A stretch of DNA of 64,000 nt. Source: Trileptium ribeirensis. Its lineage: Eukaryota; Nematoda; Enoplea; Enoplida; Thoracostomopsidae. The stretch lies in assembly GCA_030248225.1 (NCBI GenBank), contig JASANE010018708.1, forward strand, positions 50,982 through 114,981, given 5' to 3'. This document shows positions 2,158 to 40,129 of the stretch, piece after piece. The position numbers and the translations under genes were made by a program. Every line of letters starts with the position of its first letter. Position 1 is the first letter of the stretch. The notes under the pieces are model-generated. The model was not told the DNA's origin and did no database searches. It saw only the letters and a program-made list of their open reading frames with translations.

Positions 2158-5100
2158 TGTAAGGGGGTACGCGGGCAGCCCAACGTCTACCTGCAGGAAC
2201 TCCGCACCCCGAAATTTCTATTGCCCCCAGGGGTGGGCTCAGTGCAGAAGAGAGTTGCCGCCCTCTGGTCCTGGTGTTCCTGGGCAGGACCCCCGTGCGA
2301 ATACGGCCAACGTTGTCTAGTGGATGATATAGGTCCCCCCCGGTGTGGCAACCCGTTTGTGCGATGAAGGGGAAATGGGCCGCTCTCGTACACCCACTGC
2401 CGCGCGCGGGGAGCTAAGGAACAGGTGAACGCCCTCCAGCAGGCCAACGACTAACTAATGTGCACTTGTTTCATATAGGAATCGCAGTAAATTCTGATGC
2501 GTTTTGGTGTGTGTGTTTCTTCCGACGATGTTGTTTGCCAGCACCGGAAATGTGTCTTACTATCTTGCCACTTAAACTACTACAGAAGCCTGAAGGGTTG
2601 ATAGTGGAGAAGTGCGTTGGTCGTACGAGCGGGACATATTGTTTCGGTTAAGTAGTGACGCTGGGTTAAGGTAGTTGGTGCGGGACCTAGCCCGACCATA
2701 AGCTTTGCTATTGCTTCGCTGAGAATCGCGGTTAACACTAGGAAAACACCAAACTACAAAACCCCATGAGCTTATTACGCTGATATACAATGGAACGACT
2801 ATGCAAGAGTTTATTGCAAGCATTGGGAACGGCATAAAAGTTACCAAAACAGTACAAGCTACACGAAAGAATGCTTATTATTATTATTTACATGCAGGAA
2901 CAAAAATATTCGTCGATCATACTATTTACAAGTACCAGAATCAGTGGATATGAATACAAGTTGATCGCTTTGACCCACACTATCGTTTACGTTGCTTGAC
3001 AGGGCTTAGCGAACAGAGCATAAGAAAATCATTTTGTTTCATTTTGGCCGGGGTTCATGAAGGAAAAGAGAAAAGTATTTTGGGTGTAAATTTTCAGGGT
3101 GGCGAGGCCGACTGTTGCACCGTACTCAAAAATTCCACGCGAGCATGCTCACAAGCCAAACTCAATGCACTGCTCCCAAAGAGCACCACCTATTGCACCA
3201 CCCGATTAGCCAAAGCCGAAACGCTAAAGTAATTGGCCGCATGTAAATTGCCTTGTTTTGACCTGTCCAAAACCACCGTAAAACATGAGCAAACCGGTGA
3301 AAGCTTTATAAATAAACCACGATCCCACCGCAACTGCGATAGGATCGGGAACTCAGTACGTTCGCTGCTGCAAACCCGAACTCGGGAAATACAAGTTGGG
3401 TAAATTTAAACTTTGTGCAAAAGTCGTCAATAAGATTCGCTCACTGAGGCCTGACGGATCCTGAACGTACAGCGGGCATGCTAAGAAACAAGACCGCCAC
3501 TGTGAAAGAAACACCCTGTCGGTTGAGAAAATAAAACCGAAAACCAAAAAGGAAGCCATCAGGCGCACGTGAGAATTCAATTAAACTAGAAAAGTGCAAA
3601 ACTAAAGAAAAAATCGTCTGAAAGTCGACCAGTTTCTAAACCAGCAGGCCCGTACTGAGCTCCCCGAGTTAAGTGTACACCGCATTTTATACTCCGATTT
3701 AAATTTCCCACAATTACTCAAAACTAACTGGGCCAATCACGAGCCCCGATGAACAGTTACAGAGAACGGCCGTCCGAATCAGCAGTATCATAAAACATCA
3801 AACGAAAATAAGTACGTTTATATAACCAACAGAGTTTCATAAGACTTTTATCGCATCCCGAAATTATCACTTTGTATTTTCTTATCACCGAATTATGGTA
3901 GTCCTTAAGATTAGATTTAGTATCCGAGATAACATTTGAAACCGGGCGCCGTAAAATGAATATTTTGAACTCTATTTGTAAACCTTATTTGACTCGCAAG
4001 ATAACGATGTTACAAACTTAGTAGAATAACGGCTGGCTGGCGTCGAAAGGCCAGTTGTAAATACTTTACTGGGCGAGATAATAAAATGTTAGATTTACAA
4101 CCGCCCACCATAAAAATTCCAGAGCTAGATGGTAGATTTTAAATGTTCCCTACCGCAACAGAGAGGGTTAATCAGTAACTGGACTGCAATGTTTGAAATT
4201 AAGAAACAGTCGAACAAAGGAAAAACGCCACAACTGTCAGCCAACGATTCCGCCTGCCATTGACGCACACAACTCCAGTATTTAAACGTGGCACAAAAGT
4301 ACAGCGAAATTTTAGGCACTGAATAAGCAATGATCGCCGCCGTGCGCTACCACAGAAGCGAAATGAGAAACAGTGCACAAGAGCAACCCGCCAGACGCCG
4401 CAGTCCCACGCCAAAAACTCGACGTCGGTCAGAACCCACTCTAAAACAAGATGCCCGCCTAGCCAAAAACAGAATCCCCACTCGCACGGATAACGCCACT
4501 GGGTGCCACGATACACAAGAAAACGCAGAGTGCCCCGAGGGGCGAGCCCTTCCGCCAGACATATCACTCTGCGACGCCTGGCCGAAACATCGAAGAAATA
4601 CGCAATATAAATACCATCGCAATAACACGCCGATAACATTTCTAAACGTACACACTGCCGAGAACAGATGTAAATGTCGAACTCCTCCCTACCGAGATAC
4701 ACTCTGTCAAAGTACTGCAATAGTGACCGCTAAATTTCACATTTCAAAAGATGCAGAAGTTGTAAATGTTCACGGATAAACGCTACGATCGAATTACAAT
4801 AAACTACGCGATACTGCATAAACTATAACCCGCGATCACATACGAAACAATTGATAACGATCCAGTCGCGGACGCAATTGACCATGTTAGAGATAACGCT
4901 CGCCCCATCCCGTAATTTAGCAATAGCAAGTAAATCACTTGCAAGCAGTAAAAATGCCTGTGAAGTTACCGGCCACAGTCTTAACGGACCGATAAAAAAA
5001 CCCAGTACGCGCGACTGCACACGTAGAGAGAGGCGCAGAGTGCAGTACTGTCGCAGCACAAAGGCGTCCGCCAACAAAAGAAAGACACCGAGCGTCCGCG

Positions 5101-5295
5101 ACATATACACCATTCACCGAGTATTAAAATACTCTAGTCTCACTGCTATAAAAACGCGCTATACAAAACGAGCACGAAGAAATGACACCCAAACACAGGG
5201 TCGAACACAGGTCGGAAACAGGCATTCGTCGTCGAAAAAAGATCGTAGAGGATTGTGAGTGGAAGGGTTACGCACCGGGAAACCCTTCCCTCACA
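2158..5295 (-). repeat. 3' LTR of the giant element
   Basis: On the minus strand it starts TGTGAGGGAAGGG at 5295 and ends CCCCCTTACA at 2158. It aligns end to end with 23885..27021. Sample stretches compared by eye differ at roughly 4-7% of positions plus small indels. It retains the same TATA-like motif (3685..3691) and the AATAAA complement (2810..2815). Small ORFs inside are not preserved between the two LTRs. Confidence 0.95.
2810..2815 (-). terminator. Candidate poly(A) signal AATAAA in the 3' LTR
   Basis: TTTATT on the plus strand reads AATAAA in element orientation. It is conserved at the equivalent place in the other LTR (24541..24546) and sits about 840 nt after the candidate transcription start, so it would define the end of R. 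Inference from motif and conservation only. Confidence 0.45.
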
Positions 5296-5312
5296 AATCC
5301 CCCATTTTCGTT
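5296..5312 (-). promoter_or_regulatory. Polypurine tract (plus-strand primer) candidate
   Basis: Immediately upstream of the 3' LTR in element orientation the sequence reads cgaaaatgggggattt, a purine-rich run ending 2-3 nt from the TGTGAG LTR start. This is the position and composition expected for the RNase-H-resistant primer of plus-strand DNA synthesis. Confidence 0.75.
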
Positions 5313-6185: not shown

Positions 6186-7385
6186 TTATTCGCACGCTAG
6201 CTGTTGCAATAGATAATCCATTTCCTCCAGTCCCGCCGGTGTGAGGGTAGGCTCATTCATGGGATACACTACGTACGCCGTATGTGGCAAAGTCGGTTCC
6301 CATTTCCATGATTCGATGTCTTGCAGACTTGGAGGTAAAGGTACAACGCGAATGGGCTGTAAATTTCTCATTTGGGCCAGTTTGTTTTCCAATTTTGTTG
6401 CGACGCCCTGAGCCCACTCGGTTTTCGGTGTCTGGTAGATGTTCCAGTATGGCGACGGCGGGATGACCGATATTACGATATTTGCCGCTATTATGTGCCT
6501 TAGATATGATAGCTTCCTGGCAATGGCTTTAGTGTATGTGGTCGCATTCAACAACGTGATTTCGCCAGCTTTATTTCGTGACAGGGCGGCTTGTTGTCCG
6601 CCAACGAAAATAATTTGACTAATCGGTGGTTTGGCTACCAATACAGCGAGTTGAACCAATTCCGTGAAAGATGCGTCTGGCCATGATAGTATTGTTTTAT
6701 CCTGGTCGTTTGTTTGAATGCCCAGCAGTGGGAATATGCAATGGTCGCCGATAACAATGGTACGCGGCCATGGACTCTGCCCAGTACGGCGAAGGCTCCG
6801 TACCTCCTCCAGAATCTTTCCCATGACGTTTTTAACCTTGTGATTTAATGGCTTGAAGTGAAGCTCGTGCGCCTGCATACCGACGCCCCAAAACATATCC
6901 TGTGGATTAGCCTCGAGTAGTTGCGTGTTGCCCAAGTTCTCGAGCAGGTTCCCGACGTACGGGTCTTCGCATTTTTGCAGAACCAAGGGTCGCATTATCG
7001 ATGGCAGCATATGCCAGAGTATTGCTTTGCCGATGGCAGACAAATACTGCTCCTTATGCGCTCGAGCAATAGCTTTCACCTTAGCGGGGTGTAAGTTGTC
7101 GCGTCCCACCTCATCCATGGCTTCGGCTTGGTCGTATAAGTATGATATGGCGAACTGATATGCCTGCTCCACTGTATGGAAACTGCGGCCGGCGACATGG
7201 ATGTTGCCGTGGATTTTGTAGAAGTTTGAGAGGGGCGTGAGGCCAGTACCCTTACTGAGGAACGGTTCCCATCGTTGCGACCAGTCAACCTCGTAGTCTG
7301 GGACACAATGGTACGTGTCGAAATACGTGTCACTGGGACCGCCCGGAGAGTATCGTTGTGATGTGGCGGCAACGCTTTGGTCCAT
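6186..7385 (-). CDS. ORF3: NADAR (YbiA-like) domain fused to a degenerate SGNH/GDSL-like domain
   Basis: 399 aa from ATG 7385 to TAA 6186. Residues ~50-195 match the NADAR/YbiA fold: LSNFY (52-56), the block FHTVEQAYQF (69-78) and FWGVG (165-169) line up with the hallmark positions of that family, known for N-glycosidase and ADP-ribose-removing activity on guanine bases and riboflavin intermediates. Residues ~207-399 look like an SGNH/GDSL hydrolase: a beta-strand ending IGDHC (212-216, His where the nucleophilic Ser belongs), the strand IIFVGG (258-263), and a final LTPAGLEEM helix with no DxxH. The hydrolase half is therefore probably non-catalytic. The frame is open upstream to 7523 but holds no good ATG before 7385; a strong splice acceptor ends at 7389, so I chose that start. 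It occupies the canonical env slot and uses the frame of ORF1 and ORF2. Counteraction of host ADP-ribosylation is inference. Confidence 0.85.
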   Translation of the reverse strand: MDQSVAATSQRYSPGGPSDTYFDTYHCVPDYEVDWSQRWEPFLSKGTGLTPLSNFYKIHGNIHVAGRSFHTVEQAYQFAISYLYDQAEAMDEVGRDNLHPAKVKAIARAHKEQYLSAIGKAILWHMLPSIMRPLVLQKCEDPYVGNLLENLGNTQLLEANPQDMFWGVGMQAHELHFKPLNHKVKNVMGKILEEVRSLRRTGQSPWPRTIVIGDHCIFPLLGIQTNDQDKTILSWPDASFTELVQLAVLVAKPPISQIIFVGGQQAALSRNKAGEITLLNATTYTKAIARKLSYLRHIIAANIVISVIPPSPYWNIYQTPKTEWAQGVATKLENKLAQMRNLQPIRVVPLPPSLQDIESWKWEPTLPHTAYVVYPMNEPTLTPAGLEEMDYLLQQLACE

Positions 7386-7410
7386 GACCTGAGAATGAAA
7401 TGAAAGCATG
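7386..7410 (-). promoter_or_regulatory. 3' splice acceptor for the ORF3 subgenomic mRNA (predicted)
   Basis: In element orientation ctttcatttcattctcAG|GTC precedes the ORF3 ATG (7385) by three bases: a pyrimidine-rich tract followed by CAG. The intron would end at 7389 and the exon begin at 7388. It pairs naturally with the donor at 23556|23555. Prediction from consensus only. Confidence 0.6.
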
Positions 7411-7523: not shown

Positions 7524-10500
7524 TCAATCGGACTCCGGCGGCAACGGCTTCAAAGTACGCAGCTCTAGCTGGCTCGGAGTCAAACTTCCGGCACCGGTTC
7601 CGTGCGGTGAGTCGTCGTCCGATGCGGGGCGATTACGCGCTGGTTTGCCCTTGCCTGTGATACTATGCTTCTTCGTTGTTCCTCGTTTGATTGCTGGCGT
7701 TGTTCGGTTCGTAGCTCTAGTCCTGGTCTTGTCGCGCGGTTTCGGAGACAGCGGTGGTGATTCACCACTGGAAGAATCGTCCGAATCCTCCGGCATGCGG
7801 CGAAACTTTACCGACTGTTTGGTAGTGTTAGCAGGTGCCTTTGCGTCGGGTTTCCTGCTAGTTATTCGCAACGCTTGTTGAAGAACGTTATCGATCGCTT
7901 TGTCGTACTGCTGATCGATGCGCTGCACCCTATCGGTCTTGATTTGGGCTGGTCCCCTGGGTTTCGACTGTTCGCTGGCTCGTGTAAGCTGCGAGACGGG
8001 AGCGGCTGTAGCCTGGACGCCGAGTTGGCTACCAACTGGCGTGTTATGACTACGGTCGTGAGTCAAGAGCGGTCGGTCGTCAATCAGAAGGTCTTGCTGT
8101 TGTATTTGGCTGGGCCGTATTGGTTGCCCAGGTTCAGCGTCTCCGAGACCATCCGATGAGTCCGACGGCAGACGAGACCGGGGTGACGCCGGCATGTGAG
8201 CAGGAGGTGAATCCAACGCGTCAATTGGTTCCGCTTCGGACGAATCTGGGTCATAATGTGGCGCGTCCGCAGTACGCTGCGCTTCCTCAAATTCCCAATT
8301 TGCGCGAAAAACCTCGTCTCCCTTCAGAGGTCGCAACAACTCAGTCCGATCTATGGCGGCAAGCGGATCTGGTCCGTCAACTGCAAACACTCGTGGGGGA
8401 AACGCTTTCTTAGTGCGGTTCATGTGCACTGTTAGAATCGGCCCATCAGGTATTCCTACGAGCTGGACCGTCATGCTTGGAGCTTTGACTTCGATGACGC
8501 GGTAGGGTCCGTGCCATCGGCGAACCAGTTTCCGGCTCAAATGCGGGGACCAGTTGTAGGCGTACACCCAAACTAAATCACCAGGTTGATAGCTTGCCTC
8601 CTTTGCGTTCTTGTTATACTGTGCAGCCTGCTTTGATTGTGCGTTCCGCAGAGCCTGGCGTACGTTTTGTCTAACGCGACGCAGCCAGCCCAGAACGATT
8701 GTCCGATACGCGCTGACCCCTGAGTAGTTTTCCAAACAGTGCTTTTCCGCCATGTCACCCGGCAGTCTTGGGTCAAATCCGTGCATTAGTACAAACGGGG
8801 ACTCGCCAGTGGTGCTATGGATGGCAGCGTTGTAGGCCATCGTGACGTAAGGGAGCATTTCGTCCCACCGCAAATGGTCGTTAGCCGAAAGGCTGGTTTT
8901 CAACATTTGTAGCAACGTCCGATTGAACCGTTCGATTTCCCCGTTGGCCTGGGGGTGGTGGGCAATCACCTCACGTTTGTAAGTACTAACAATGGCGCAT
9001 ATACTTTTAAACAAGGCGGAGACAAACTGTCTTCCTTGGTCAGAGAGCAGCTCCTTCGGAGCTCCGAACCGGTTCACCAGTCCGTCCACGAATAGCTCAG
9101 CCACGGTTCTGGCTTTCTGGTCGCTAGTAGGAAAAGTGATGGCAAATTTGGTGAACTGGTCAATGAACGCAACCACATAACGGTTTCCAGACAGTGTCGT
9201 GACTCGAACGTCAAGAATATCAACGAAGACCCGGAACATTGGTTGCGTCGGCACGGGCAGCAGACCCATAGGTGCCTTTGGTTTCTTGGGCGGGTTCTTT
9301 GACGTTTGGCATACTAAACATGTCTGAATCCATCGAGACACGTCTCGGTTAATGGTAGGCCAGTAATAAAACATGGCGACTTTTGCTACCATCCTGTTAC
9401 GACCAGGGTGTCCAGCGTACACACCCTCGTGTTCGCGTGCAAGAATAGTTTCTACCAAGCTAGCAGGAACGCAAATTTTGGGCCTAGTGTCCGCAACAAC
9501 ACAAGGCTGCTTGTATAAAATCTCGTCCTCGTTGAGCTCAAACTGTGAGGCAGTCAACAAAACTCGACGAGCCGCTTTATCGTCCTCGGGGAGTACGCCT
9601 GTACGCAGATGATGGACGATGGGGCCAAAATATTCGTCCTTTTCTTGTTCTTCCGCAAGATTGGCAGCGTCACAACCGAGCTCGGGAGCGTTCAACTCCT
9701 CGGCGAGATAAATGTCTGGCTCAAGAGTCAGCTTATCTCGCCGCCTCTCTAAAGGTTGCTGTTCGGCCATCAAGGCGTTCGGTTCATCCTCCACATCGAA
9801 TGGACGTCTACCAAACCGTCGTTTCCAATGTGGTACATGCCCTTTTCGTTGGGGCTGTGCATCCGATATAGAACTGTCAGAAGAGATCGAATGCCCGGAT
9901 CCCTGATCCGCCTCATCTCCTCCACCGGCTTCTTTTGACGTCGTTGGTTGCTGGACCGGTCTGTCAGTGAACAAATTAGGTGATGCTCTTTGTTTTGACG
10001 GTGTTTTTCGATTCTGCCCAACAATGGCATTCACCATCCGCATATCCTTTCGCCGTTCTTCCAACGGAACTTCCTCCGATGCTTCGTCACTATGCGGCTC
10101 GTGTCGTGGATCGCGTGACAGAGCATCTGCGTTGCCGTTCGCCTTTCCCGGCCGATATACGATTTCGAAACTCCCGAACTCAACGAGCAGTTCGTTGCTC
10201 CACTGCGCAATCCGCGAATTCTTGGGCGGTTTTGCGAAGAGTTGTTTCAGTGGTTTGTGGTCGGTCTCCACCACGAATTTATGCCCGTACAGGTAATGTT
10301 TGAAGTATAACACGGCCCAGCGTATAGCCAGCGCCTCTGCTTCGATCGGCGGGTAGCGTCTCTGGTACGACAGGAGTGCCTTGCTGGCATAAGCGATGGG
10401 CTTGATTCCGCCGTCGGTCTTCTGCGACAGTACTGCCCCCATGGCGAAACCTGACGCATCAGTTTGTACAATAAACGGCACACCGAAATCGGGATAGATT

Positions 10501-13500
10501 AGCAGAGGATCGCGACTTAGGATGTCCTTAAGCCGGTCAAATGCTTCCTGGCAAGCCACAGTCCATTCGAAAGATGCGTCTTTGCGTCGTAGCCGGTTAA
10601 GCGGTTCCGCGATGTCTGAGAAGTTCGGTATAAATTTGCTATAATACGTCACGATCCCGAGAAAACTCTGGAGATGCTTCAGTGCTTCCGGTCGTCGAAA
10701 CTGTTGAATAGCCAGTGTTTTCTCGGGGTCCGGCCGAATGCCTTCTGTACTAACGATGTGCCCAAGGTATTTCAGCGACCTCTGCCCGAATTGACATTTC
10801 TTCGGTTTGAGGCGGAGGTTAGCCTGCCGGAATCGGTCGAATACCTCGGCCAAATCAGCGAGATGTCGGTCGAACGACGGCGAAAATACCAAGATGTCGT
10901 CGATATATATTAAGCATTTCTCCCACTCTAGACCTGCTAACGCTAGTGCCATGCACCGTTGGAATGCGCCAGGTGAGGAATTCAGGCCGAACGGAAGCAC
11001 GTTATACTCGAATTGGCCATGGACGGTTACAAAGGCCGTCTTTTGTTTCGTAGCTGGGTCCAGTTCGACTTGCCAAAATCCTTTATTTAGGTCGAGACTG
11101 GACATAAATTTGGTATTCTTTAACGTGGCCAATATGTCGTCGATTCGGGGGAGAGGGTATGCGTCCTGTTCGACGACGGCATTTACCTTGCGGAAGTCAA
11201 CACAAAGTCGCAGTGACCCGTCACTTTTGTTCACATAAACTATTGGGGAGCCCCACGGCGAATCCGATGGCTGTATCACTCCGGCGGCTATCATATCGTC
11301 AATCTCTTTGCGAAGTGGCTCGCGAAGAGCATGTGGCAGCCGGTGAGGTATCTGTTTGATGGGTCGGGCGTCGCCCGTTTGTATCGTGTGTGGCGCTAAG
11401 GTACACCGACCCAAATCAAAATCATCGGTGCTGAAGACGTCTGCGTTACCCGCAATGACATTCCGGAGTTGTTTCTGTTGCGGAGCTGTCAGAGTTGAAT
11501 TAGCTAGCTGGATTTTCTCAAGAACAAGCCTAGCCCGTTCATGATTCATGTTTCGGCGGTCTGCGTTGACTCTCTGCAGAACCATAGTCGGCTCTTGACG
11601 CATGTTGTTCAACCGTCCAACCGGCTGACTTTGGACGTAACTCAACAGTTCCTGGCCTCGCGTAGTAATATACTTAACTTGCTCTAAGTTGATATGCTCT
11701 AAATATCCTATCAGTTGTCCCGCATGTAAGCAAACCGGCTGGTCAGTGAAGTTGACGGCGGCCACTGGAACCGTCGGTCGCCCCGTCATCACAAGGGCAT
11801 TGGATAGCACTGGGTTCATGAGCGTCGATAGTGGTGTGAACACAGCCGAACCGGCATGTGTGACGTCCGTTTCAGGCACTGCGTTGAAGAAGGTTTCCGT
11901 GTTCGGCGGTATGGTCATCCGCGTGCGACTCACCACCGCGACCAGGCTCGGGAAACCGCCAGGTGGCGCTGCGAACGGTATTCGGTAAACTTCTTCGGTG
12001 GAGAAGTCGGAAATATCCAGACAGCGATGTAAGAAGTCTATGCTGAACTTGGACATAGATGACATAAAGTCCGTGCCGAGGATGAGTTGGTATGGTGGAT
12101 CCGGTACGACGCGTAGAGTGCACTTCGAAGTAAGCGGCCCGAGGGCTACCCTCGCAGCTGCAACTCCAGAAGTGGCTAATTCCTGCATGGAGGCAGTGAT
12201 TATCCGCGGTCGTTGCTCCTGACGGATGTCTAAATTAGCTTTTCGCGCTGCAACGAGTGAAATCACCGAGACGTCGGCACCGGTGTCCAACAACGTTAGC
12301 ACGGGGACTGAGTTTACTTTAGCATTGACCACAAGTGGCGAGACCGTTGCTGCCAGAGTATTCATTTGCTTAGCTGCCTTTGCTTTTGAAGTACAAGGAT
12401 CGTCGCCAGGAAACCTCAGCTCTTTGATCGGCGTGCGGTCACGACGAGGTACGCCGCTGTAGTATCGTGGATCCCGGTCTAAAACAACGTGTGGGGATCG
12501 CTGTGTCAGTCCGGCCGCGGTCCTAGCCTGGTATCGCGTATTATAGGGTGGCGTAATATTAAATGGTTCAATCGGTTCGACTTTAGGCTCCTGATGTGGT
12601 TCAGACGGCATGCTGATCATGAGCGGGTGGCGAACATCAGGGAGGGCTGTCCGTTCCGCGGGACGCCGACGATCGGCAGGCGATGTATAATGTTCCCAGC
12701 TGGAGCGGAGTCGAGAACGACAGTCATAACTTTTGCAGTACCGGTATCCCGCGCAAGCCAATACAACTACAACCGCCATCAGTATGATTATTGCGTATGC
12801 GGGAACGCGCGAGCCAGCGGTGATTGGCAACGTGAAAGTCTTCGTAAGCTGCCCACTCACCAGTTGCTGTACGTGAAGATTAGCTGCTTTGGCCTCGTTC
12901 AATGAGGTCCAGGTGAGTGGCTTGAACGAGATGTCCGGGGGCGCGGTAATATTTAGTTTTGCAGCTAGGGTAACAGAGAAGTAGCTCGGTTCCAATGTAC
13001 TAGTGAGCATAATATCGCCAACAACCAAATGCGTGTAATTTCGGTGTGCAAACCACATTACTCCATTTCCTGGCACTGGTATCCGTTCTCCCTGACTAAC
13101 ATGGCTCAGGACCTTTCGATTGGAACGGATTATATGAGTTGCACGAGTGCGGAAGAGCACTCCCGCTATCGTGGACAGAACCCGAGTTTTGTCTGTCATT
13201 GGTCCAACGAGCATATGGTCTTTACAATAGTCGCGTATGTGTCCGGCCGCAGAGTCACCGAGGATCGCCCACTCCAGGCATTGGGTCCGGGCGTCTACAG
13301 ACAGTGCGTCATGCGAACAATAAGCTAGCCCGGGCTTAGCCACGCAAGCTTCCATGTTTAACACTTCGTACCGTGAATGATCCAGTTTAGCCACGTGGAG
13401 CGGTAAAGGTAGTTTAAATTGAGTGTCCGCCGTCGGGTGATTCCACCCCACGTTGTAGATCCGAAAAAACGGTCTCACGTCCGATTCCCGCGCGAGTGGA

Positions 13501-16040
13501 ATCTCGAGAATAAAAGCGAACTTGAGCCGTCGTAAATCAGCATGCACGGGGTAAACCTTTCCAAATTGATACGCCAACCCCGGTTCGCGATTCAAAAGCG
13601 AGGCCGTGATCAGTGGGTCCTGTTGAAAGAGCTTCCGCAGCATTACCACGTCGATAACGGCGGGATCGAGTCGACCATGCACCATGGAATCCATGACGGT
13701 GCGCACCGCAGTACGTAGGTTGGTACTAAAGATGTGGCCAATAAGACTCTGGTGCACATGGGCGGCATACTTACGGTCGTTGCACCGCACTTGTTCGATC
13801 ATTGACGTCACCTCCTGCATCCCGTGGTGCAGGAACGTATACAGTTCCTCGTTAGCGACGGTCAGCTTGTGAATCGCCTTTGCGTTCATAATCATGTCCT
13901 GGTGAGAATTCTCTACGGCATTAGCAAGAGCATCGACCTTGTCGTCTAGGCCATGAATGTGTGCAGAATTGTACAGAGACATTCCCGTCCCGAACAGTCC
14001 GGTTAATCCACCCAACGCCGCTGCTGCTGCGAGCAGGGCAAAACGCTTAGGCCGGGTCCCCTGGCCCTGATCGCAGAAGTGCTGGTTCTGTTGACAAAAC
14101 GTTTGCATCAGAGTAGCGTAATAGCCCGTGTCTAAAATGCCGTTGTACGCATCGAACATTTCTGTTTGTAGCGCGTCAACCAGGCTGCGCAGCTGCGGGT
14201 AGGCCTCGCAAGTGGCGTTAAAGCAGCAGTCGGCTCTGCACTGTCCATCTGGTGAGAATGGTGGGCAGAAAGAGTTGTTTTCTGCCATGACTAAATCGCG
14301 CCAATTGTTGAGCGACAGCTGCAGAATGACAGGCAGATGCGTCGTTCTCAGGGCTGATATCACGAGCCCTTGCGGCTCCACGAGTACTCCGAAATCCCTG
14401 CTAACGAACGAACCGAGACGCGCCGCTTGACTGCTAAAAGGCGATGCGATGGCGATAGGGAACGTTCCGAATGCGAACAGGGCTAGAAGCGCGACTAGCA
14501 ATAAGTTACCTGAGCCGTAGTGAGCGAAGACGGATCGTCGTGCGTTGGTTAGACCAACCGCTGCAACAGTATAGTTTGTTTCTCTTCCATTCGTTTTCGG
14601 ATAGCGGGCGCGCTGACCGTGATCTTCAGCCTGGTCTGGCGTTGACAGTTCTGGAGTAGGGCTACCCGCCTCCAGACCGTTTTCGCCATGTGCGGTCTCC
14701 TCACGGTTACGTTCCGATGCCTCAAGTGGCTCGGTGACCCTCAGGCGCTTTTCAGGCAAGTCCAATATCTCGTAGTCGTCGATTGAATCTTCATCCGACT
14801 CCGTGTCAATTTCAAGATCGTGGCATAATTCACGTTCGGTTTCTCGGCGGCTGCGCCGGGTCAGTATTCGAAATAAAGCACGCAGACGCGCGTTAAGAAG
14901 TGTCCTAGCCGAGCTTCTAACACAAACTCCAGACTTTGTAGCCATCCTGGCTAGCACTTCATCGGAAGGCTTACTTCTTTCGGCTCTGAGGCTAGCTATG
15001 GTGACAACAGTACGGTTCACAAACTCGGGCAACTGCAATGCAAGTAGATGAAATTGCAGTAATGCGGCGCTAAGACTTTCCTTTTGTCGGCTATCAGTGA
15101 CCAGCACGTCTTCGTTGGAGAGTTCAGCATCCGGCGTCAAAGCGAAGACTTCGGTTCGCAGGCCTTGCAGGGCGTTCCACATTCCTCTGGGCGTCTTGTA
15201 CCAACATCGCGACGTACACGCATCGTGGAGCCGAGTCCATACTTCAGTGCATGCCATGCCCGATTGGCGCTCTTCGGCCAACATATCGCTGTAGACATCC
15301 CGCAGTGTTTCATTGCTCGTAACGCGGGACGTGATGGCAAGCAGCACTTCGCAAGCCGACAGTTTGGGCATCGACGGATACGCATGGTCTTCCGTGAAGA
15401 TGAACGGTGTGACACTACGCAGCGCATGGCGTATGCTACTTGCTTCCTCTCTTTCGCGTTTCGTTTCGGCCGTGCATTCCCGGTCCTTGAAATAGTGCAA
15501 TTGCCGTTGCAGCTCGGCGAGCACACTGTGGGTACGGCGGACGGTCAACCAAAGAGGCTGATTAGCCAAAGCTTGTGCTTCCATTCCGTATCGATCAAAA
15601 GGTGTCTCCATGCATGATTTGTCCGACGCTTCTTCGCCCTCGTTGCTGACAGGGTAGGACAATTGATCACTGCTGACATGTGGTCCTAAACACACGGCCA
15701 AGTATTGTCCCTGGCGAGTTTCTCCTGGTAGAACGTTATTCGTGCTGAATAGTTCCGAGGGCCCTTCAAGGCGCAAGAGCTGGTCTGCATCCAGTCGCCG
15801 AATAAATATTTCAAGATAGCCGTTATAGTCAACTGTGCCCTCTGAACGGAGAATAGTCAAATCCTTCTCGCTTTGCTCAGACGCTGGATCCTGGTCGCGT
15901 GGAGTGACTTGGTCGACAGGTGTCGGGTCGAGCGAGCTCGAAACGGGGCTACCCCTTTCCGAACAGGCTGCGATCCCATTCAATTCGTGAGCTTCCGCTG
16001 GATCTATGACCGTAGTATTAATTTCCGGTATGTTTGCTCC
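7524..16040 (-). CDS. pol: ORF2: X'-Env-protease-RT-RNase H-integrase polyprotein
   Basis: 2838 codons are open after the ORF1 TAG. A TTG at 15983 is residue 1 for numbering; the first ATG codon is residue 125, inside a domain, so this frame has no sensible start and is probably reached by TAG readthrough. Order: X' domain 52-380; acidic linker; signal/TM segment 492-514; Env ectodomain to ~1060 with furin site RPKR (644-647), fusion peptide and heptad region; TM anchor 1061-1083; aspartic protease with DTG (1233-1235) and ILGTD (1301-1305); RT with YIDD (1693-1696); RNase H with D1842, E1881/E1883 and D1908; integrase zinc domain H2185-H2192-C2222-C2225; catalytic D2255, D2315, E2351 (D-35-E); GPY/F at 2492; then a 250-aa basic Ser/Pro-rich tail ending at TGA 7524..7526. 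All catalytic residues are present and no frameshift was seen. Two membrane segments around Env would leave X' and Pol on the cytosolic side. Confidence 0.95.
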   Translation of the reverse strand, partial: GANIPEINTTVIDPAEAHELNGIAACSERGSPVSSSLDPTPVDQVTPRDQDPASEQSEKDLTILRSEGTVDYNGYLEIFIRRLDADQLLRLEGPSELFSTNNVLPGETRQGQYLAVCLGPHVSSDQLSYPVSNEGEEASDKSCMETPFDRYGMEAQALANQPLWLTVRRTHSVLAELQRQLHYFKDRECTAETKREREEASSIRHALRSVTPFIFTEDHAYPSMPKLSACEVLLAITSRVTSNETLRDVYSDMLAEERQSGMACTEVWTRLHDACTSRCWYKTPRGMWNALQGLRTEVFALTPDAELSNEDVLVTDSRQKESLSAALLQFHLLALQLPEFVNRTVVTIASLRAERSKPSDEVLARMATKSGVCVRSSARTLLNARLRALFRILTRRSRRETERELCHDLEIDTESDEDSIDDYEILDLPEKRLRVTEPLEASERNREETAHGENGLEAGSPTPELSTPDQAEDHGQRARYPKTNGRETNYTVAAVGLTNARRSVFAHYGSGNLLLVALLALFAFGTFPIAIASPFSSQAARLGSFVSRDFGVLVEPQGLVISALRTTHLPVILQLSLNNWRDLVMAENNSFCPPFSPDGQCRADCCFNATCEAYPQLRSLVDALQTEMFDAYNGILDTGYYATLMQTFCQQNQHFCDQGQGTRPKRFALLAAAAALGGLTGLFGTGMSLYNSAHIHGLDDKVDALANAVENSHQDMIMNAKAIHKLTVANEELYTFLHHGMQEVTSMIEQVRCNDRKYAAHVHQSLIGHIFSTNLRTAVRTVMDSMVHGRLDPAVIDVVMLRKLFQQDPLITASLLNREPGLAYQFGKVYPVHADLRRLKFAFILEIPLARESDVRPFFRIYNVGWNHPTADTQFKLPLPLHVAKLDHSRYEVLNMEACVAKPGLAYCSHDALSVDARTQCLEWAILGDSAAGHIRDYCKDHMLVGPMTDKTRVLSTIAGVLFRTRATHIIRSNRKVLSHVSQGERIPVPGNGVMWFAHRNYTHLVVGDIMLTSTLEPSYFSVTLAAKLNITAPPDISFKPLTWTSLNEAKAANLHVQQLVSGQLTKTFTLPITAGSRVPAYAIIILMAVVVVLACAGYRYCKSYDCRSRLRSSWEHYTSPADRRRPAERTALPDVRHPLMISMPSEPHQEPKVEPIEPFNITPPYNTRYQARTAAGLTQRSPHVVLDRDPRYYSGVPRRDRTPIKELRFPGDDPCTSKAKAAKQMNTLAATVSPLVVNAKVNSVPVLTLLDTGADVSVISLVAARKANLDIRQEQRPRIITASMQELATSGVAAARVALGPLTSKCTLRVVPDPPYQLILGTDFMSSMSKFSIDFLHRCLDISDFSTEEVYRIPFAAPPGGFPSLVAVVSRTRMTIPPNTETFFNAVPETDVTHAGSAVFTPLSTLMNPVLSNALVMTGRPTVPVAAVNFTDQPVCLHAGQLIGYLEHINLEQVKYITTRGQELLSYVQSQPVGRLNNMRQEPTMVLQRVNADRRNMNHERARLVLEKIQLANSTLTAPQQKQLRNVIAGNADVFSTDDFDLGRCTLAPHTIQTGDARPIKQIPHRLPHALREPLRKEIDDMIAAGVIQPSDSPWGSPIVYVNKSDGSLRLCVDFRKVNAVVEQDAYPLPRIDDILATLKNTKFMSSLDLNKGFWQVELDPATKQKTAFVTVHGQFEYNVLPFGLNSSPGAFQRCMALALAGLEWEKCLIYIDDILVFSPSFDRHLADLAEVFDRFRQANLRLKPKKCQFGQRSLKYLGHIVSTEGIRPDPEKTLAIQQFRRPEALKHLQSFLGIVTYYSKFIPNFSDIAEPLNRLRRKDASFEWTVACQEAFDRLKDILSRDPLLIYPDFGVPFIVQTDASGFAMGAVLSQKTDGGIKPIAYASKALLSYQRRYPPIEAEALAIRWAVLYFKHYLYGHKFVVETDHKPLKQLFAKPPKNSRIAQWSNELLVEFGSFEIVYRPGKANGNADALSRDPRHEPHSDEASEEVPLEERRKDMRMVNAIVGQNRKTPSKQRASPNLFTDRPVQQPTTSKEAGGGDEADQGSGHSISSDSSISDAQPQRKGHVPHWKRRFGRRPFDVEDEPNALMAEQQPLERRRDKLTLEPDIYLAEELNAPELGCDAANLAEEQEKDEYFGPIVHHLRTGVLPEDDKAARRVLLTASQFELNEDEILYKQPCVVADTRPKICVPASLVETILAREHEGVYAGHPGRNRMVAKVAMFYYWPTINRDVSRWIQTCLVCQTSKNPPKKPKAPMGLLPVPTQPMFRVFVDILDVRVTTLSGNRYVVAFIDQFTKFAITFPTSDQKARTVAELFVDGLVNRFGAPKELLSDQGRQFVSALFKSICAIVSTYKREVIAHHPQANGEIERFNRTLLQMLKTSLSANDHLRWDEMLPYVTMAYNAAIHSTTGESPFVLMHGFDPRLPGDMAEKHCLENYSGVSAYRTIVLGWLRRVRQNVRQALRNAQSKQAAQYNKNAKEASYQPGDLVWVYAYNWSPHLSRKLVRRWHGPYRVIEVKAPSMTVQLVGIPDGPILTVHMNRTKKAFPPRVFAVDGPDPLAAIDRTELLRPLKGDEVFRANWEFEEAQRTADAPHYDPDSSEAEPIDALDSPPAHMPASPRSRLPSDSSDGLGDAEPGQPIRPSQIQQQDLLIDDRPLLTHDRSHNTPVGSQLGVQATAAPVSQLTRASEQSKPRGPAQIKTDRVQRIDQQYDKAIDNVLQQALRITSRKPDAKAPANTTKQSVKFRRMPEDSDDSSSGESPPLSPKPRDKTRTRATNRTTPAIKRGTTKKHSITGKGKPARNRPASDDDSPHGTGAGSLTPSQLELRTLKPLPPESD
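8469..9461 (-). other. Integrase domain of ORF2
   Basis: Residues ~2175-2505: a zinc-binding domain of the form H-x6-H-x29-C-x2-C, a D,D-35-E catalytic core containing LSDQGRQF and HHPQANGEIERFNR, and a C-terminal GPY/F module (HGPYRV). Family knowledge: it inserts the cDNA into chromosomes and assigns the element to Ty3/Gypsy. No chromodomain was recognised in the tail after it. Confidence 0.92.
10104..11366 (-). other. Reverse transcriptase and RNase H domains of ORF2
   Basis: Residues ~1540-1745 hold the RT blocks: LCVDFRKVNAV, SLDLNKGFWQVEL, FGLNSSPGAFQRCM and YIDDILVF. RNase H (~1835-1960) follows with TDASG, EAEALA and ETDHKPL, ending DALSR. The arrangement is textbook Ty3/Gypsy, with no missing metal-binding residues. 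Confidence 0.95.
12024..12371 (-). other. Retroviral-type aspartic protease domain of ORF2
   Basis: Residues ~1205-1320: active-site LLDTGADVSVIS, the flap-region glycine TSG, and the second-half motif LILGTDFM. It lies directly after the Env cytoplasmic tail and before RT, so it must cut Env away from Pol as well as process Gag, if the polyprotein model is right. Confidence 0.9.
12699..14546 (-). other. env: Env-like class I fusion glycoprotein embedded in the polyprotein
   Basis: Residues ~480-1095 of ORF2. A hydrophobic signal/TM segment (492-514, ending AIAS) is followed by a Cys-rich region (C573, C582, C586, C587, C592, C630, C637), a furin-like site RPKR at 644-647, an Ala/Gly-rich hydrophobic fusion-peptide-like stretch (648-672), a heptad-like helical region (~678-735), a long ectodomain with sequons N569, N589, N982 and N1011, and a TM anchor at 1061-1083 followed by Cys and basic residues. 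The layout is like errantivirus Env and baculovirus F proteins; which lineage it comes from I cannot decide. Its position before protease, in frame with pol, is what is odd. Confidence 0.85.
14844..15830 (-). other. X' domain, second copy of the unknown domain
   Basis: Residues ~52-380 of ORF2. Diverged paralogue of the end of ORF1: shared blocks include YNxYLE, LEGPxELF, PGExxxGQY, the KLSACEVLLA block, SRVT, HDxCxxxCW, GxWNA and FxLTP. The Cys pair in HDxCxxxCW and the Cys of SACEV are kept in both. I recognise no family. It sits between the TAG and the Env signal segment, so it would be cytosolic. Confidence 0.8.
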
Positions 16041-16060
16041 CTATGTTCCATACGCTCCGA
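16038..16060 (-). promoter_or_regulatory. In-frame TAG between gag and env-pol: readthrough candidate
   Basis: The junction reads GGA ACA TAG GGA GCA AAC ATA. The frame continues open for 2838 codons with no ATG in the first 143. TAG followed by GGA is the same stop and next codon used at the gammaretrovirus gag-pol readthrough site. A GC-rich small hairpin (GGGGTAGCCCC) lies ~85 nt downstream; no pseudoknot was modelled. A splice-fed ORF2 is possible, but no good acceptor was seen here. Confidence 0.6.
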
Positions 16061-19000
16061 GATTGCTAGTTGAGTCGTCCAGTGAGGAGTCAGTACCGGT
16101 GCAGGAGTTACTCAGTTCCGCACGTTCTGCAGCCGGCTGCGCACGAAGCGTCAAGGTTCTAGTCAAGTAGACTAGGCGGTGGGCAAGCGACGTCTTTGCT
16201 TCTTCACCGAGGTACAACCCCGTGTTGTCAAGCAGTGATGATAGCTGCTCGTCGAAAGGTTCGCATTCAGTGTGCACATTCGCTGGCGATGTGATCAGTT
16301 CCGTGATGAGTTTCGGCAGGTGTAGCGCAATCCTGTGAAATTGGAATAGGGCACACCGGACGTTGTCTGGCTGCCGGCTAGTAGTGATCAACACTTCGTC
16401 ATGGTCTAGGTCACCCTGCGGTGTCAATGAGAAGACCGCATTTCGGAAGCCCAGCCGGGCATTCCACGTACCGTGCGGCGATCGGAGCCAACATTCGTCC
16501 GAGCATTCATCGTGTGGCTGCGCCCATGCTTGCATGCACAGCGGACCCAGACTATATTCTTCTCGGCGCACGTCCTGATAGACTTCCCGTAATGGCTTAC
16601 GATCCGTGACGCGGGAAGTGAGAGCGAGCAGCACCTCACACGCTGACAGTTTGCGAATTGACGGCCGAGGTCGGGCCTGGGTGAAATCGAATGGTGTGAC
16701 ACACCGTAGGGTGTGATAAACGTTAGCTATTTCCATCCGCTCGTGGTCATCAAAAGCCGAGTCCAGTCTTTGTCTAAAATGCGCGATCTGCCGTGATAAT
16801 TCTAGTAGGACACTGCGTAGGCGCCTGAACGTTAGCCACGACGGTTCGTTAGCCAGCTGTACGGCGTCCGCCTCGCGTCGCTGCGTCACGGCTCCATTTG
16901 GCATATCACTCGTACCAATTTCGCGGTCATTACCGGTGGGGTCCACAGGATGCGGCAATGTATCATAGTCGACCTCAGGTAGTAGGCATATGGCAACATA
17001 TTGACCCAACGCTGGTTCGCCCGGGAAGATTTCATCCGTGGTAAAAAGTTCTCGTGGACCCTCGAGTTCCTGCATCTCGTTAGCCGTGGGTTGCCTAATA
17101 TAGGCTTCCAAATAGGAATTGTACACCATGACGCACGTCCGTGCTGCTTGGGTGAGTTTATCCTGGTTCGCGTTTGTCCCTGAAGAAGTAGGTTCACTTT
17201 CGTCCATATCGTCGTTTGGACTGGCTACGTTCAGCAGGTCGTCCACTGGTTCTCCGACCAGTGCTCCGTTTCGCGTCAAATTTTCGGTCTCACTTGCAAA
17301 AGCGGTAGGTCCATTAGTAACACTATGTTGTAACCATGTCGAAATACCAAGTTTTCCGCTGGGTAAAGTACACGTGACACACACTCCCTTACGATTACAT
17401 CCGTTTCCGCGACACACGTTCATTATTCGGTACATGTTAGGACGAGTTTGGCTAGCTGAAGGTCCCAGACTTGAGTCAGAAATGTCCGAAGACCGCGATC
17501 CCGTCGACTTCATGGTAGGCAAGACTCGCGTTGCTACCGCCGAGGGCAGTCGGTTGATTTTAACGACTTCTTCTGCAGGTGCGTGTTGGGTTGCCCGTGC
17601 GGGACCGAACGACCTAGCTGCGCTCCCCACGCAACCAGTGTCCGGTGCTCCGTCGGGACTTGGGGTGTGCTTTCCGAACGCAAATTTAGCGGCGACGCCT
17701 GCTTCCGGTCTTCCAAACCTTCCCGTTGTCGGGACAGCGGGATACCCGTTGGTAGAGCCGCGCCGGTCCGAAGCCGTTCCACAGGTGTGCGTATTAGGTT
17801 CCACTTCAGGTTCACTGGTCTCCGCTTCATCATCCGTTAAGTCATCACAAGATAAGGAAGACGAGGTCGTTGACAAGCAGCTTTGGCTACCGCGGCCACT
17901 GCCAACTTCCTCGGTCGGATCTTCCGGTGCGCACAGAACTTTGAGGACCGGCACTGTGTCCGGCGAGTCGTCCGTAACTTGATCCGTATTGAAAAGGGCC
18001 GATGTTCCGTGCAAAATCGGCAGACTTTGGGTTTGGAAAACGGGTGACCTCAAAACCGATGCCAGAGGCTGTGGCAGTCGGGTGGCTCTTACACAACTGC
18101 TGGTTTCCGCAATACCCGGCGCTTCACAACTACCGGGCGCAATGGGGCCGAACTTTTCTCGTTCATTTACATTGCCACCACGTTCTCCGCGCGTTGCATT
18201 ACTCCGAGGACCAGTTGATTCCACTTCGGTTAGGTTAGGTTCCGCATCGACACTGGCGGCCTCCGACAGGCCTGCAACCGCATTGGTATTCGTAAGAGCC
18301 AAAATTTTCCTAAATGGAGTGCCAAACTCACTTGGACAAGGGCTGGGATTGCAGCTCCGAACCCTGGCGATAAGACATTCTACCCCGGAGGCAGGGAACT
18401 TTAGCCAGGTGCAGCCGCGCGACCGTTGGACAATCCTCTTGGCGAGCAGTCGAACATGATGTTGAGCCTCGCTCGGCAGCTCGTTGCACGGAGTTATTAT
18501 TTCCATACGCGTCGTCGCACCAGAATCGGTCGCGGGCTGTTGGACGGGCACAGTTGACCAATTGCCGACGACTGGACAACTGCGGACGTGCTGCTGGGAA
18601 GCTGCGCTACAACTTCCAAGGACAAAAGGAGAAGCGGGTTCCACGGAACATGGGGCGAAGGAACCACCATTAAAGGGTCCCATGCCGCTGGCTTTCGTAC
18701 AGGTATCATCGATGGTAGGCCCGTGGGGAGACGATATCACGCGCTCCGAAAAATGTACCTGCCTATTCACCGCACGGGTTAATTCTTCCGCTAAGTTCCA
18801 TACATTTCCGTTGCTAGGCATAGGTTCACACAAGTTGCTAGGTATAAGTTCACACAAGTTGCTAGGTACGCTCGTTGGGCTCCGAGGACTTTTCCGAAGC
18901 AGCACTTGTGGTTCCTTCGTGGTTCCCCAATTTTCCGACCTGGGCCAAAAATCTGGTCCGAGGGCTCGAACAGCGGTGAGGGAGTGGTGATCAGGCACCC

Positions 19001-23863: not shown

Positions 23864-23881
23864 CTCACGGCGTGGCCCCCA
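23864..23881 (-). promoter_or_regulatory. Primer-binding-site candidate
   Basis: Four bases after the LTR end (CA|AATT) the minus strand reads TGGGGGCCACGCCGTGAG, starting with the TGG complementary to a tRNA CCA end. I could not assign the tRNA. The offset and TGG start fit; the rest is unverified. Confidence 0.55.
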
Positions 23882-24540
23882 ATTTGTAACGGGGTACGCG
23901 GGCTGCCCAACCTCCACCTGCAGGAACTCCGCACCCCCCCTAATTTCTATTGCCCCCAGGGGTGGGCTCAGTGCAGAGGAGAGTTGCCGCCCTCTGGTCC
24001 TGGTGTTCCTGGGCAGGACCCCCGTGCTAATACAGCCAACGTTGTCTAGTGGATGATATAGGTCCCCCTCGGGTGTAGCAACCCGTTCGTCCAATGAAGG
24101 GGAAATGGGTCGCCCTCGTACACCCACCGCCGTGCGCGGGGAGCTAAGGAACAGGTGAACGCTGTCCAGTAGGCCAACGGCTAACTAACGTGCACTTGTT
24201 TTATTTTGGAATCGCAGTAAATTCTGATGCGTTTTGGTGTGTGTGTTTTTTTCCGACGATGTTGTTTACTAGCACCGGAAATGTGTCTTATTATCTTGCC
24301 ACTTAAACTACTACAGAAGCCTGAAGGATTGCTACTGGAGAAGTGTGTTGGTCATACGAGCGGGACATATTGTTTCGGTCAAGTAGTGACTCTGGGTTAA
24401 GGTAGTTGGTGCGGGACCTAGCCCGACCATAAACTTTACTATTGTTTCGCTGAGAATCGCGGTTAACACTACGAAAACACCAAACTACAAAAACCAATGA
24501 GCTTATGACGCTGATATACAATGGAACGACTATGCAAGGG

Positions 24541-24546
24541 TTTATT
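24541..24546 (-). terminator. Candidate poly(A) signal in the 5' LTR
   Basis: AATAAA on the minus strand, conserved in the 3' LTR. In the 5' LTR it would normally be bypassed. Motif-based inference. Confidence 0.4.
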
Positions 24547-25387
24547 GCAAACATTGGGCACGGTATAAAAGTTACCAAAACAGTACAAGCTACACGAAAG
24601 AATGCTTATTATTATTATTTACATGCAGGAACAAAAATACTCGTCGATCATACTATTTACAAGTACCAGAATAAGTGGATGTGAACATACAAGTTGATCG
24701 CTTCGACCCACACTATCGTTTACATCGCTTGACAGGGCTTAGAGAACAGAGCATAAGAAAACCATTTTGTTTCATTTTGGCCGGGGTTCATGAAGGAAAA
24801 GAGAAAAGTATCTTGGTTGTAAATTTTCGGGGTGGCGGGTCCGATTGTTGCCCCGTACTCCAAAATTCCACGCGAGGATGATCACCTGCCAAACTCAATA
24901 CACTGCTCCCAAAGAGCACCACCTATTGCACCACCCGATTAGCCAAAGCCAAAACGCTAAAGTAATTGGCCGCATGTAAATTGCCTTGTTTTGACCTGTC
25001 CAAAACTACCGTAAAACATGAGCAAACCGGTGAAAGCTATATAAATAAACCACGATCCCACCGCAACTGCGATAGGATCGGGAACTCAGTACGTTCGGTG
25101 CTGCAAACCCGAACTCGGGAAATACAAGTTGGGTAAATTTATACTTTGTGCGAAAGTCGTCAATAAGATTCGCTCACTGAGGCCGGACGGATTCTGAACG
25201 TACAGCGGGCATGCTAAGAAACAAGACCGCCATTGTGAAAGAAACACCCTGTTGGTTGAGAAAAGATACCCGAAAACCCAAAAAGAAAACCGTCAGGCGC
25301 ACGTGAGAACTCAATTAAACTAGAAAAGTGCAAAACTAAAGAGAAAATCGTCTGAAACTCGACCAGTTTCTAAACCAGCAGGTCCTT

Positions 25388-25425
25388 ACTGAGCTCCCCG
25401 AGTTAAGTGTACACCGCATTTTATA
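25388..25425 (-). promoter_or_regulatory. Core promoter candidate: TATAAAA and TCAGT initiator
   Basis: In element orientation TATAAAATGCGG (25425..25419 for the box) is followed 35 nt later by TCAGT (A at 25390), resembling the TATA plus Inr arrangement of arthropod and other invertebrate retroelements. The same pair is kept in the 3' LTR (3691..3685 and 3658..3654). The spacing is slightly long. Confidence 0.45.
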
Positions 25426-40028: not shown

Positions 40029-40129
40029 TCTCCAACTTTGTTTCTACTGTAAATGTAATCGATGAATGTTGTGAGTTTAAAAACCGTAGAAACTGTTGCA
40101 ATTGTATTTCATTAATTTTCGCAGTCTAT

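What the first reader, a model, noticed from the sequence alone, without database searches (positions are those of the whole stretch)
6186..7385. NADAR-SGNH accessory protein in the env slot of a retroelement
The third ORF carries a YbiA/NADAR domain, a family linked to ADP-ribose removal from nucleobases and NAD-related metabolism, fused to an SGNH-like domain. Placement downstream of pol with its own splice acceptor mirrors retroviral env/accessory genes. A retroelement-borne counter to host PARP or nucleic-acid ADP-ribosylation defence is an attractive inference.
Basis: partly seen in the sequence, partly recalled or inferred. Interest (0 to 1): 0.93.

Follow-up and report, generated by a model that had tools for sequence, protein, structure and literature searches.

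The report
NADAR accessory gene of giant retroelement
A giant virus-like retrotransposon in an unnamed, probably animal, genome carries after its polymerase gene a strongly conserved extra protein built on an ADP-ribose-handling (NADAR) domain whose active site is altered in the same way in every relative aligned, which suggests a useful but changed activity.

Summary
The ORF is real, on the minus strand: the last gene of a 24.9-kb Ty3/gypsy-type LTR element (2158-27021). Its first half is a NADAR domain (Pfam E=2e-14; 22 of 22 aligned family rows match). The second half is conserved, with SGNH-like motifs, but profiles do not support SGNH, its catalytic residues are mostly gone, and no fold prediction could be run. 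"env slot" misleads: an env-like region (leader, RPKR, fusion peptide, TM) lies in frame between gag and protease, as described for planarian Burro elements. In the same genome ORF3 was found at the expected place downstream of env in 18 of 19 env-selected copies. Its NADAR half is under strong purifying selection (dN/dS 0.01-0.17). The family keeps the ribose-binding acids, but the lysine needed for efficient guanine-ADP-ribose hydrolysis is Ile or Val in 22 of 22 rows (Lys in 16 of 16 other NADARs). So an accessory gene is supported; removal of ADP-ribose against host defence is untested and weakened. NADAR in retroelements is in print (Ectocarpus Gypsy, oyster LINEs). New, as far as searched: a separate NADAR gene in env-bearing giant LTR elements, with a lineage-wide altered active site.

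The parts
2158..5295 (-). 3' LTR (about 3.14 kb)
   Evidence: blastn of the two LTRs: 93.6% identity, 174 mismatches and 11 gap openings over 3153 columns; TG...CA ends read
5296..5308 (-). polypurine-tract-like AAAATGGGGGATT directly before the 3' LTR
   Evidence: sequence
6186..7385 (-). ORF3 (the finding): 399 aa from the ATG at 7385 to the TAA at 6186
6795..7238 (-). NADAR domain (Pfam PF08719, residues 88-235 of the 437-aa frame)
   Evidence: E=2e-14
6189..6779 (-). C-terminal conserved domain, SGNH-like motifs (GDH, WPDAS, GGQ), degenerate
   Evidence: no profile support; weak hhalign
7386..7410 (-). 3' splice-site-like sequence CATGCTTTCATTTCATTCTCAG|GTC; AG at 7389-7390
   Evidence: 0 of 81 background windows as good
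7524..7526 (-). TGA ending the pol frame; the ORF3 frame continues in register after it
8994..9470 (-). integrase: H2C2 zinc-binding and rve core
10188..10565 (-). RNase H domain
10752..11234 (-). reverse transcriptase RVT_1 (YIDD at 10907)
12060..12329 (-). aspartic protease (gag-asp_proteas; LDTGAD at 12290)
12750..14504 (-). env-like, class-I-fusion-like region: hydrophobic leader (14504), RPKR (14054), fusion-peptide-like stretch (14042), C-terminal TM (12806-12750)
   Evidence: motif and hydropathy scan, (no Pfam hit); relatives share the region
16041..16043 (-). TAG between gag frame and env-pol frame; the env-pol frame has no methionine until residue 144; copy C6238 is open across this point
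16041..21146 (-). gag ORF, 1701 aa: weak Retrotrans_gag (20580-20813, E=0.006, below cut-off), one CCHC knuckle (20190-20231), then about 1380 aa without a known domain
23866..23881 (-). primer-binding-site-like TGGGGGCCACGCCGTG, 3 nt after the 5' LTR
   Evidence: sequence; the matching tRNA was not sought
23885..27021 (-). 5' LTR

Best explanation
ORF3 encodes a dedicated accessory protein of a giant, env-bearing Ty3/gypsy-type element, separate from its gag-env-pol polyprotein. It is probably made from a spliced subgenomic RNA in this lineage (acceptor just before the ATG) and from its own ATG in relatives. The protein joins a NADAR domain to a family-specific C-terminal domain that may descend from an SGNH hydrolase but has lost that catalytic set. 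I think most likely that the NADAR pocket still holds an ADP-ribose- or ribose-phosphate-type ligand (ribose-coordinating Glu pair, Asp and Trp kept), but that replacing the catalytic lysine by a hydrophobic residue has changed its chemistry, so that it works as a reader or shield, or as a hydrolase of altered specificity, on modified nucleic acid or protein during replication, with the C-terminal domain as a binding or targeting part. Shown: gene, position, conservation, selection, residue changes. Inferred: expression route, ligand, role.
For: NADAR by Pfam in 22 of 22 aligned rows, by similarity to phage NADARs and to solved structures. Position: in 17 of the 18 contigs that appear in both search lists env lies upstream of ORF3 on the same strand; ORF3 was found at the predicted place in 18 of 19 env-selected copies on contigs absent from the ORF3 list. 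A pol domain (RT/RH, IN or IN tail) was matched in the fetched stretch of 19 of 26 ORF3 loci. Selection: dN/dS 0.01-0.17 for NADAR and 0.09-0.19 for the C-terminal half, each in the 11 of 17 pairs that were not saturated; NADAR is close to RT/IN of the same copies (0.013-0.091, one IN pair 0.36). ORF3 rows form one clade (support 0.999) on a long stem, with Ile/Val at the lysine column in 9 of 9 against Lys in 16 of 16 other NADARs. Acid pair kept.
Against: No structure, expression or biochemical evidence; ligand binding is inferred from residues alone. Two more ADP-ribose contacts of P. nicotianae NADAR look changed (R93 position Pro in 22 of 22; W89 position Trp in only 6 of 22; alignment is uncertain there), which could also mean that the pocket no longer binds ADP-ribose. 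The acceptor stands out in only 6 of 25 loci examined, in three of them against 11 windows and in one against 2, and in one (L018) the best site is not the one next to the ORF. The 22 rows come from one genome.
Confidence: 0.5

Rival explanations
1. Active nucleic-acid de-ADP-ribosylase: the protein removes ADP-ribose from guanine or other bases placed on the element's RNA or cDNA by host PARPs or other ADP-ribosyltransferases.
For: NADAR enzymes act on guanine-ADPr (PMC11543638, PMC11125620, passages); the E125 acid is kept in 21 of 22 and E43 in 22 of 22 (mechanism from PMC11543638 section 12).
Against: The lysine described there as essential for efficient hydrolysis (Arg could substitute in vitro) is Ile or Val in 22 of 22. 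[quoted passage not shown]
Confidence: 0.2
2. N-glycosidase or RNA-processing enzyme with another substrate (a YbiA-like N-glycosidic activity, or processing of the element's RNA intermediate, as suggested in print for the Ectocarpus and oyster elements).
For: YbiA cleaves N-glycosidic bonds of riboflavin intermediates (PMC11543638 passages); RNA processing was proposed for retroelement NADARs (PMC12477816 passages); the only three protein-database hits of the family profile look like LINE ORF1 proteins with NADAR.
Against: YbiA and the three LINE-like proteins have the lysine; nothing here points to a specific substrate.
Confidence: 0.15
3. The C-terminal half is the working part: an SGNH-derived lipid- or glycan-binding domain acts in membrane targeting or particle assembly, as proposed for GDSL ORFs of rotifer LTR elements and LINE ORF1 esterases, and NADAR is scaffold.
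For: GD, WP-A-S/T and GG blocks in SGNH order, Ser after GD in 6 of 22; hhalign with TesA relatives collinear over 160 columns, P=0.024, better than 20 of 20 column shuffles; GDSL ORF3s are known in rotifer LTR elements, and Athena-L derivatives without catalytic residues (PMC5408684 passages).
Against: No profile support, hhalign probability 1% and 8 of 150 block shuffles as good; block-III Asn is Gln/Tyr in 22 of 22 and no block-V His; the NADAR half is at least as conserved.
Confidence: 0.1
4. Neutral passenger: a captured host gene carried along without function.
For: Giant elements often carry cargo (PMC6431247 passages).
Against: dN/dS far below 1 between copies, 82 of 98 matched stretches without a stop, some of them fragments, present at the expected place in 18 of 19 copies.
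Confidence: 0.02

Closest known systems
Burro giant gypsy-like LTR retroelements of planarians (described in PMC6431247, section 7 read)
   Same: Giant size (here 24.9 kb with 3.1-kb LTRs), gag at the N-terminus, env-like region in frame between gag and protease, a polyprotein frame of about 4.6-4.75 kaa in 15 of 77 env matches (4,873 aa in Burro), accessory ORFs.
   Different: No BIR, BCL2, MATH/TRAF, ankyrin or dUTPase domain among Pfam hits at E<=1 of the pieces. NADAR is not among the Burro domains named in the section read. Host unnamed; no sequence comparison with Burro was possible.
NADAR-bearing Gypsy elements of Ectocarpus and Tx1 LINE ORF1s of oyster (PMC12477816, passages read)
   Same: YbiA-family NADAR captured by retroelements.
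   Different: There NADAR lies at the N-terminus of Pol or in LINE ORF1; here it is a separate gene downstream of pol, fused to a second domain, in env-bearing giant elements, without the catalytic lysine. Whether the published ones keep the lysine was not seen.
GDSL/SGNH ORF3s of bdelloid rotifer LTR retrotransposons (PMC5408684, passages read)
   Same: Non-env third ORF downstream of pol; gene exchange between retroelement classes.
   Different: Those ORF3s have intact SGNH residues; the paper does not mention NADAR (0 occurrences).
YbiA, P. nicotianae NADAR (8bau) and DarT1-linked NADAR antitoxins (PMC11543638 section 12)
   Same: Domain, acid pair (YbiA-branch Glu), conserved Asp and Trp.
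   Different: Catalytic Lys replaced by Ile/Val, R93 position Pro.

Membership tests
NADAR superfamily (PF08719) | Significant match to the family profile | tested here: met
   E=2e-14, 54.6 bits against cut-off 35.1; 22 of 22 aligned rows at E<=1, best 3e-18
NADAR superfamily (PF08719) | YbiA-branch catalytic Glu (E125) and ribose-coordinating Glu (E43), Asp130, Trp133 | tested here: met
   E43 22/22, E125 21/22 (one Asp), D130 22/22, W133 22/22
NADAR superfamily (PF08719) | Phosphate-coordinating lysine (K50 / C7 K95), defining for the known guanine-ADPr hydrolase activity, not for the fold | tested here: not met
   Ile or Val in 22 of 22; Lys in 16 of 16 non-ORF3 rows
NADAR superfamily (PF08719) | YbiA fold | not tested
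   Structure prediction was busy at each of 13 tries (first, last)
NADAR superfamily (PF08719) | De-ADP-ribosylation of nucleic acid | not testable with these tools
   needs protein
SGNH/GDSL hydrolases | Profile match | tested here: not met
   no Pfam hit at E<=10 for the C-terminal half; no SGNH family among the 22 rows at E<=1
SGNH/GDSL hydrolases | Catalytic Ser after GD (block I) | tested here: not met
   His in the window; Ser in 6 of 22 rows
SGNH/GDSL hydrolases | Block-III Asn and block-V His | tested here: not met
   Gln/Tyr in 22 of 22; no aligned His in the last block
SGNH/GDSL hydrolases | Profile-profile similarity / fold | tested here: inconclusive
   hhalign against six TesA-type sequences: collinear over 160 columns, P=0.024, probability 1%, better than 20 of 20 column shuffles; 8 of 150 block shuffles as good. 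Fold not predicted
Ty3/gypsy LTR element | PR-RT-RNaseH-IN order, LTRs | tested here: met
Burro-type elements | env in frame between gag and protease | tested here: met
   in the window a TAG separates gag from env-pol, not in copy C6238
Burro-type elements | Apoptosis/ubiquitin domains (BIR, BCL2, MATH), dUTPase | tested here: not met
   none among Pfam hits at E<=1 for the pieces of the window
Burro-type elements | Sequence relationship to published Burro | not testable with these tools
   no Burro sequence available

The most novel reading that the evidence does not exclude
Env-bearing giant retroelements of an animal lineage have recruited a NADAR as a standing accessory gene and remodelled its active site into a catalytically altered reader or shield of ADP-ribosylated nucleic acid or protein: a hint of a retroelement-host contest fought through ADP-ribose on nucleic acids in animals.
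Probability: 0.18. Interest if true: 0.88.

Novelty: new variant of a known kind. Interest (0 to 1): 0.62.

Why it matters
The role of NADARs outside DarT operons and across eukaryotes, animals included, is an open question (stated in PMC11125620, passages). Here is a NADAR gene kept by selection in many copies of a mobile, env-bearing element in one genome, with one active-site change shared by every row aligned. That makes a clear biochemical question testable (does a lysine-less NADAR bind, read or cleave ADP-ribose?) and a clear genetic one (what does the element gain?). It may also extend an architecture described for planarian Burro elements (env inside the polyprotein), and it joins two lines of retroelement gene capture, NADAR and perhaps SGNH, in one protein.

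Tried and rejected
Readthrough expression of ORF3 from pol: in the window, L012 and L016/L036 ORF3 lies in the pol frame after one TGA, and single in-frame stops also occur in L026, L030 and L033; but in L019-L024 the frame differs and the stop codons vary between lineages, so conserved readthrough is not supported. Readthrough of the gag TAG: I first read it as a retrovirus-like signal (note); copy C6238 (98% identical over the env piece, 94% over the stretch compared) has an open frame there, so a private nonsense change is likelier. C6238 as a copy lacking ORF3: the place is filled with A-rich low-complexity sequence and only the last 39 residues match, probably an assembly fault.

SGNH by profile: (no protein at E<=10 among 4486 candidates) gave nothing; two searches gave weak hhalign signals. 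The first C-terminal alignment A4 had one wrong row (L012) and was replaced by A5. Host naming through a COX1 search: only a decayed nuclear mitochondrial copy. Rfam at gathering cut-offs: nothing in the window. Protein search with ORF3 alone: nothing at E<=0.01 among 3380 candidates. Viral contigs with the ORF3 family: 44 stretches matched a pattern, none confirmed. dN/dS of the C-terminal half is higher (0.11-0.38 in the 7 of 9 pairs with a value) than; it rests on pairwise alignments to a distant query, so I trust more. One IN pair (L020/L027) had dN/dS 0.36, unexplained.

Full report
What is there. The finding's coordinates hold an ORF on the minus strand: ATG at 7385, TAA at 6186, 399 aa; the frame stays open upstream to the TGA at 7524-7526 that ends the pol frame. 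It is the last gene of an LTR element at 2158-27021: two 3.1-kb LTRs of 93.6% identity, a primer-binding-like site after the 5' LTR and a polypurine-like tract before the 3' LTR. No target-site duplication was seen at the ends. The internal region codes, in one orientation: a 1701-aa gag frame with a weak gag match and one CCHC knuckle; then a frame with an env-like part (hydrophobic leader, RPKR, fusion-peptide-like stretch, TM; motif scan, no Pfam hit), aspartic protease, RT, RNase H and integrase; then ORF3.

The domain. Pfam NADAR matches at E=2e-14. tblastn of the NADAR piece finds 40 phage records at E<=0.01, best 1e-6; of the 20 listed, two (one phage, two records) are annotated NADAR, most are hypothetical. 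A profile of 22 rows hits only two PDB sequences at E<=10, both NADARs: 8bau E=3e-8 and E. coli YbiA 2b3w E=5e-4. In 5.8 billion proteins that profile found three at E<=0.001 among 4805 candidates. All three carry NADAR by precomputed Pfam. By eye two look like LINE ORF1 proteins with coiled coils and one has a CCHC-like knuckle; that class assignment is my reading of the sequences, not a tool result.

The family. The window lies in G000, an unnamed 687-Mb genome. ORF3 finds 98 matches there at E<=0.001 (96 of 2292 first-look candidates scored, so lower bounds); 82 of the 98 have no stop inside the matched stretch, some being fragments; identities run from 100 to 29%. I fetched 20 further stretches beside the eight loci. 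From these 28 loci and the window I aligned 22 rows (A2; L028 gives two). Dropped: L011 (the window itself), L013 (stops), L016 and L036 (one place, frame break), L021 and L023 (same sub-lineage as kept rows), L037 (same place as L017), L038 (frame break). A pol domain was matched in 19 of 26 loci, on the strand of ORF3. RT/RNase H is 70-82% identical to the window where found (12 of 26), while ORF3 in those loci is 29-39%: ORF3 evolves much faster than RT, but both halves stay recognisable.

Independent test of position. Searching the genome with the env piece gave 77 matches (77 of 2384 candidates scored), 15 of them in open frames of 4597-4749 aa. Eighteen contigs are in both lists; in 17 env lies upstream of ORF3 on the same strand, start to start 5-9 kb; in C16100 the two matches belong to different copies. 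From the env matches on contigs absent from the ORF3 list I chose 20 by hand, for room on the contig, and asked for the stretch where ORF3 should be: one contig proved too short, and 18 of the other 19 contain ORF3, some broken; 12 of 19 have an open frame of at least 394 aa (that it is the ORF3 frame was not checked one by one); L117 has none. So ORF3 is a regular part of this element family.

Selection. Nei-Gojobori dN/dS on the protein-guided alignment: NADAR 0.01-0.17 and C-terminal 0.09-0.19, each in the 11 of 17 pairs that were not saturated. NADAR constraint in other pairings (0.009-0.099) is close to RT and IN of the same copies (0.013-0.091, one IN pair at 0.36). The protein is therefore useful to the element over long times (inference).

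Active site. Residues named for P. nicotianae NADAR (PMC11543638, section 12 read) were mapped through. Kept: E43 22/22, E125 21/22, D130 22/22, W133 22/22, R79 21/22. Changed: the K50 position is Ile or Val in 22/22; the R93 position Pro in 22/22 and the W89 position Trp in only 6/22 (alignment less certain there). In a tree of 25 NADARs the nine ORF3 rows form one clade (0.999, long stem; next to the CCHC-bearing LINE-like protein P0001 with support 0.70), with Ile/Val in 9/9 against Lys in 16/16 others. That paper reports the lysine as essential for efficient guanine-ADPr hydrolysis, with Arg able to substitute in vitro. A shared hydrophobic replacement under purifying selection speaks for altered function rather than decay.

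C-terminal half. Ser follows GD in 6 of 22 rows, but the block-III Asn and block-V His are absent in all. No Pfam, PDB or protein-database support. hhalign against six TesA-type sequences is collinear over 160 columns with P=0.024 and beats 20 of 20 column shuffles and the reversed profile, but has probability 1% and is matched by 8 of 150 block shuffles. I call it SGNH-like in motif, unproven in fold, and if SGNH, probably not an active hydrolase.

Expression. In this lineage a strong acceptor-like site precedes the ATG. The best site beats all background windows in 6 of 25 loci (window, L012, L014, L015, L018, L038; only 2-11 windows in four of these; in L018 the best site is a more distant one), not in the other 19, where own ATGs are mostly seen. 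ORF3 is in the pol frame in some lineages and not in others, so readthrough is not a conserved route.

env. The env-like part sits in frame between gag and protease, the arrangement described for Burro as the first case (PMC6431247, section 7). In the window a TAG lies between gag and env-pol; in sister copy C6238 the frame is open there, as in the long frames. The window's polyprotein frame therefore looks broken in this copy. LTR divergence of 6.4% with long open frames and no duplication may mean that the copy arose by exchange between elements (inference).

Host. Unnamed.

Known versus new. In the held library the only paper I found with NADAR domains in retrotransposons is the Ectocarpus one, which also reports oyster Tx1 LINEs (passages read). 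One search listed 15 of 104 papers, most with 'nadar' in other senses as far as titles show; one search listed 8 of 1,464 and was uninformative. GDSL third ORFs are known in rotifers (PMC5408684, passages). So the kind is known; position, fusion, host group and altered active site are new as far as those searches show.

Noticed in passing
window 16041-20190: About 1380 aa of the gag frame after the CCHC knuckle match no Pfam family at its cut-off; an unusually long unknown stretch for a gag.
   Followed up: no
window 16041-16043: In-frame TAG that separates gag from env-pol in this copy; copy C6238 is open there, so this copy's polyprotein appears broken.
   Followed up: partly
window 2158 and 27021: LTRs differ by 6.4% although the frames are long and open, and no target-site duplication is visible; possible recombination between elements.
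   Followed up: partly
L120 (G000:C6238:71500-74500): A-rich low-complexity sequence replaces most of ORF3 in a copy with 98% identical env; looks like an assembly fault.
   Followed up: partly
L039, L040 (G000:C17193): Decayed nuclear copy of mitochondrial COX1. Met positions (conservation recalled) read Met under table 5 and Ile under table 9, which speaks weakly against a flatworm host.
   Followed up: partly
window 39415-40744: 1.35-kb region that matches itself in inverted orientation at 83% identity, possibly a palindromic or foldback element.
   Followed up: no
window 49727-50200 and 41586-42134: Short-period self-matches that look like tandem repeat arrays.
   Followed up: no
P0001, P0002, P0003: LINE ORF1-like proteins (by eye) that carry a NADAR domain with the catalytic lysine, from public assemblies.
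   Followed up: partly
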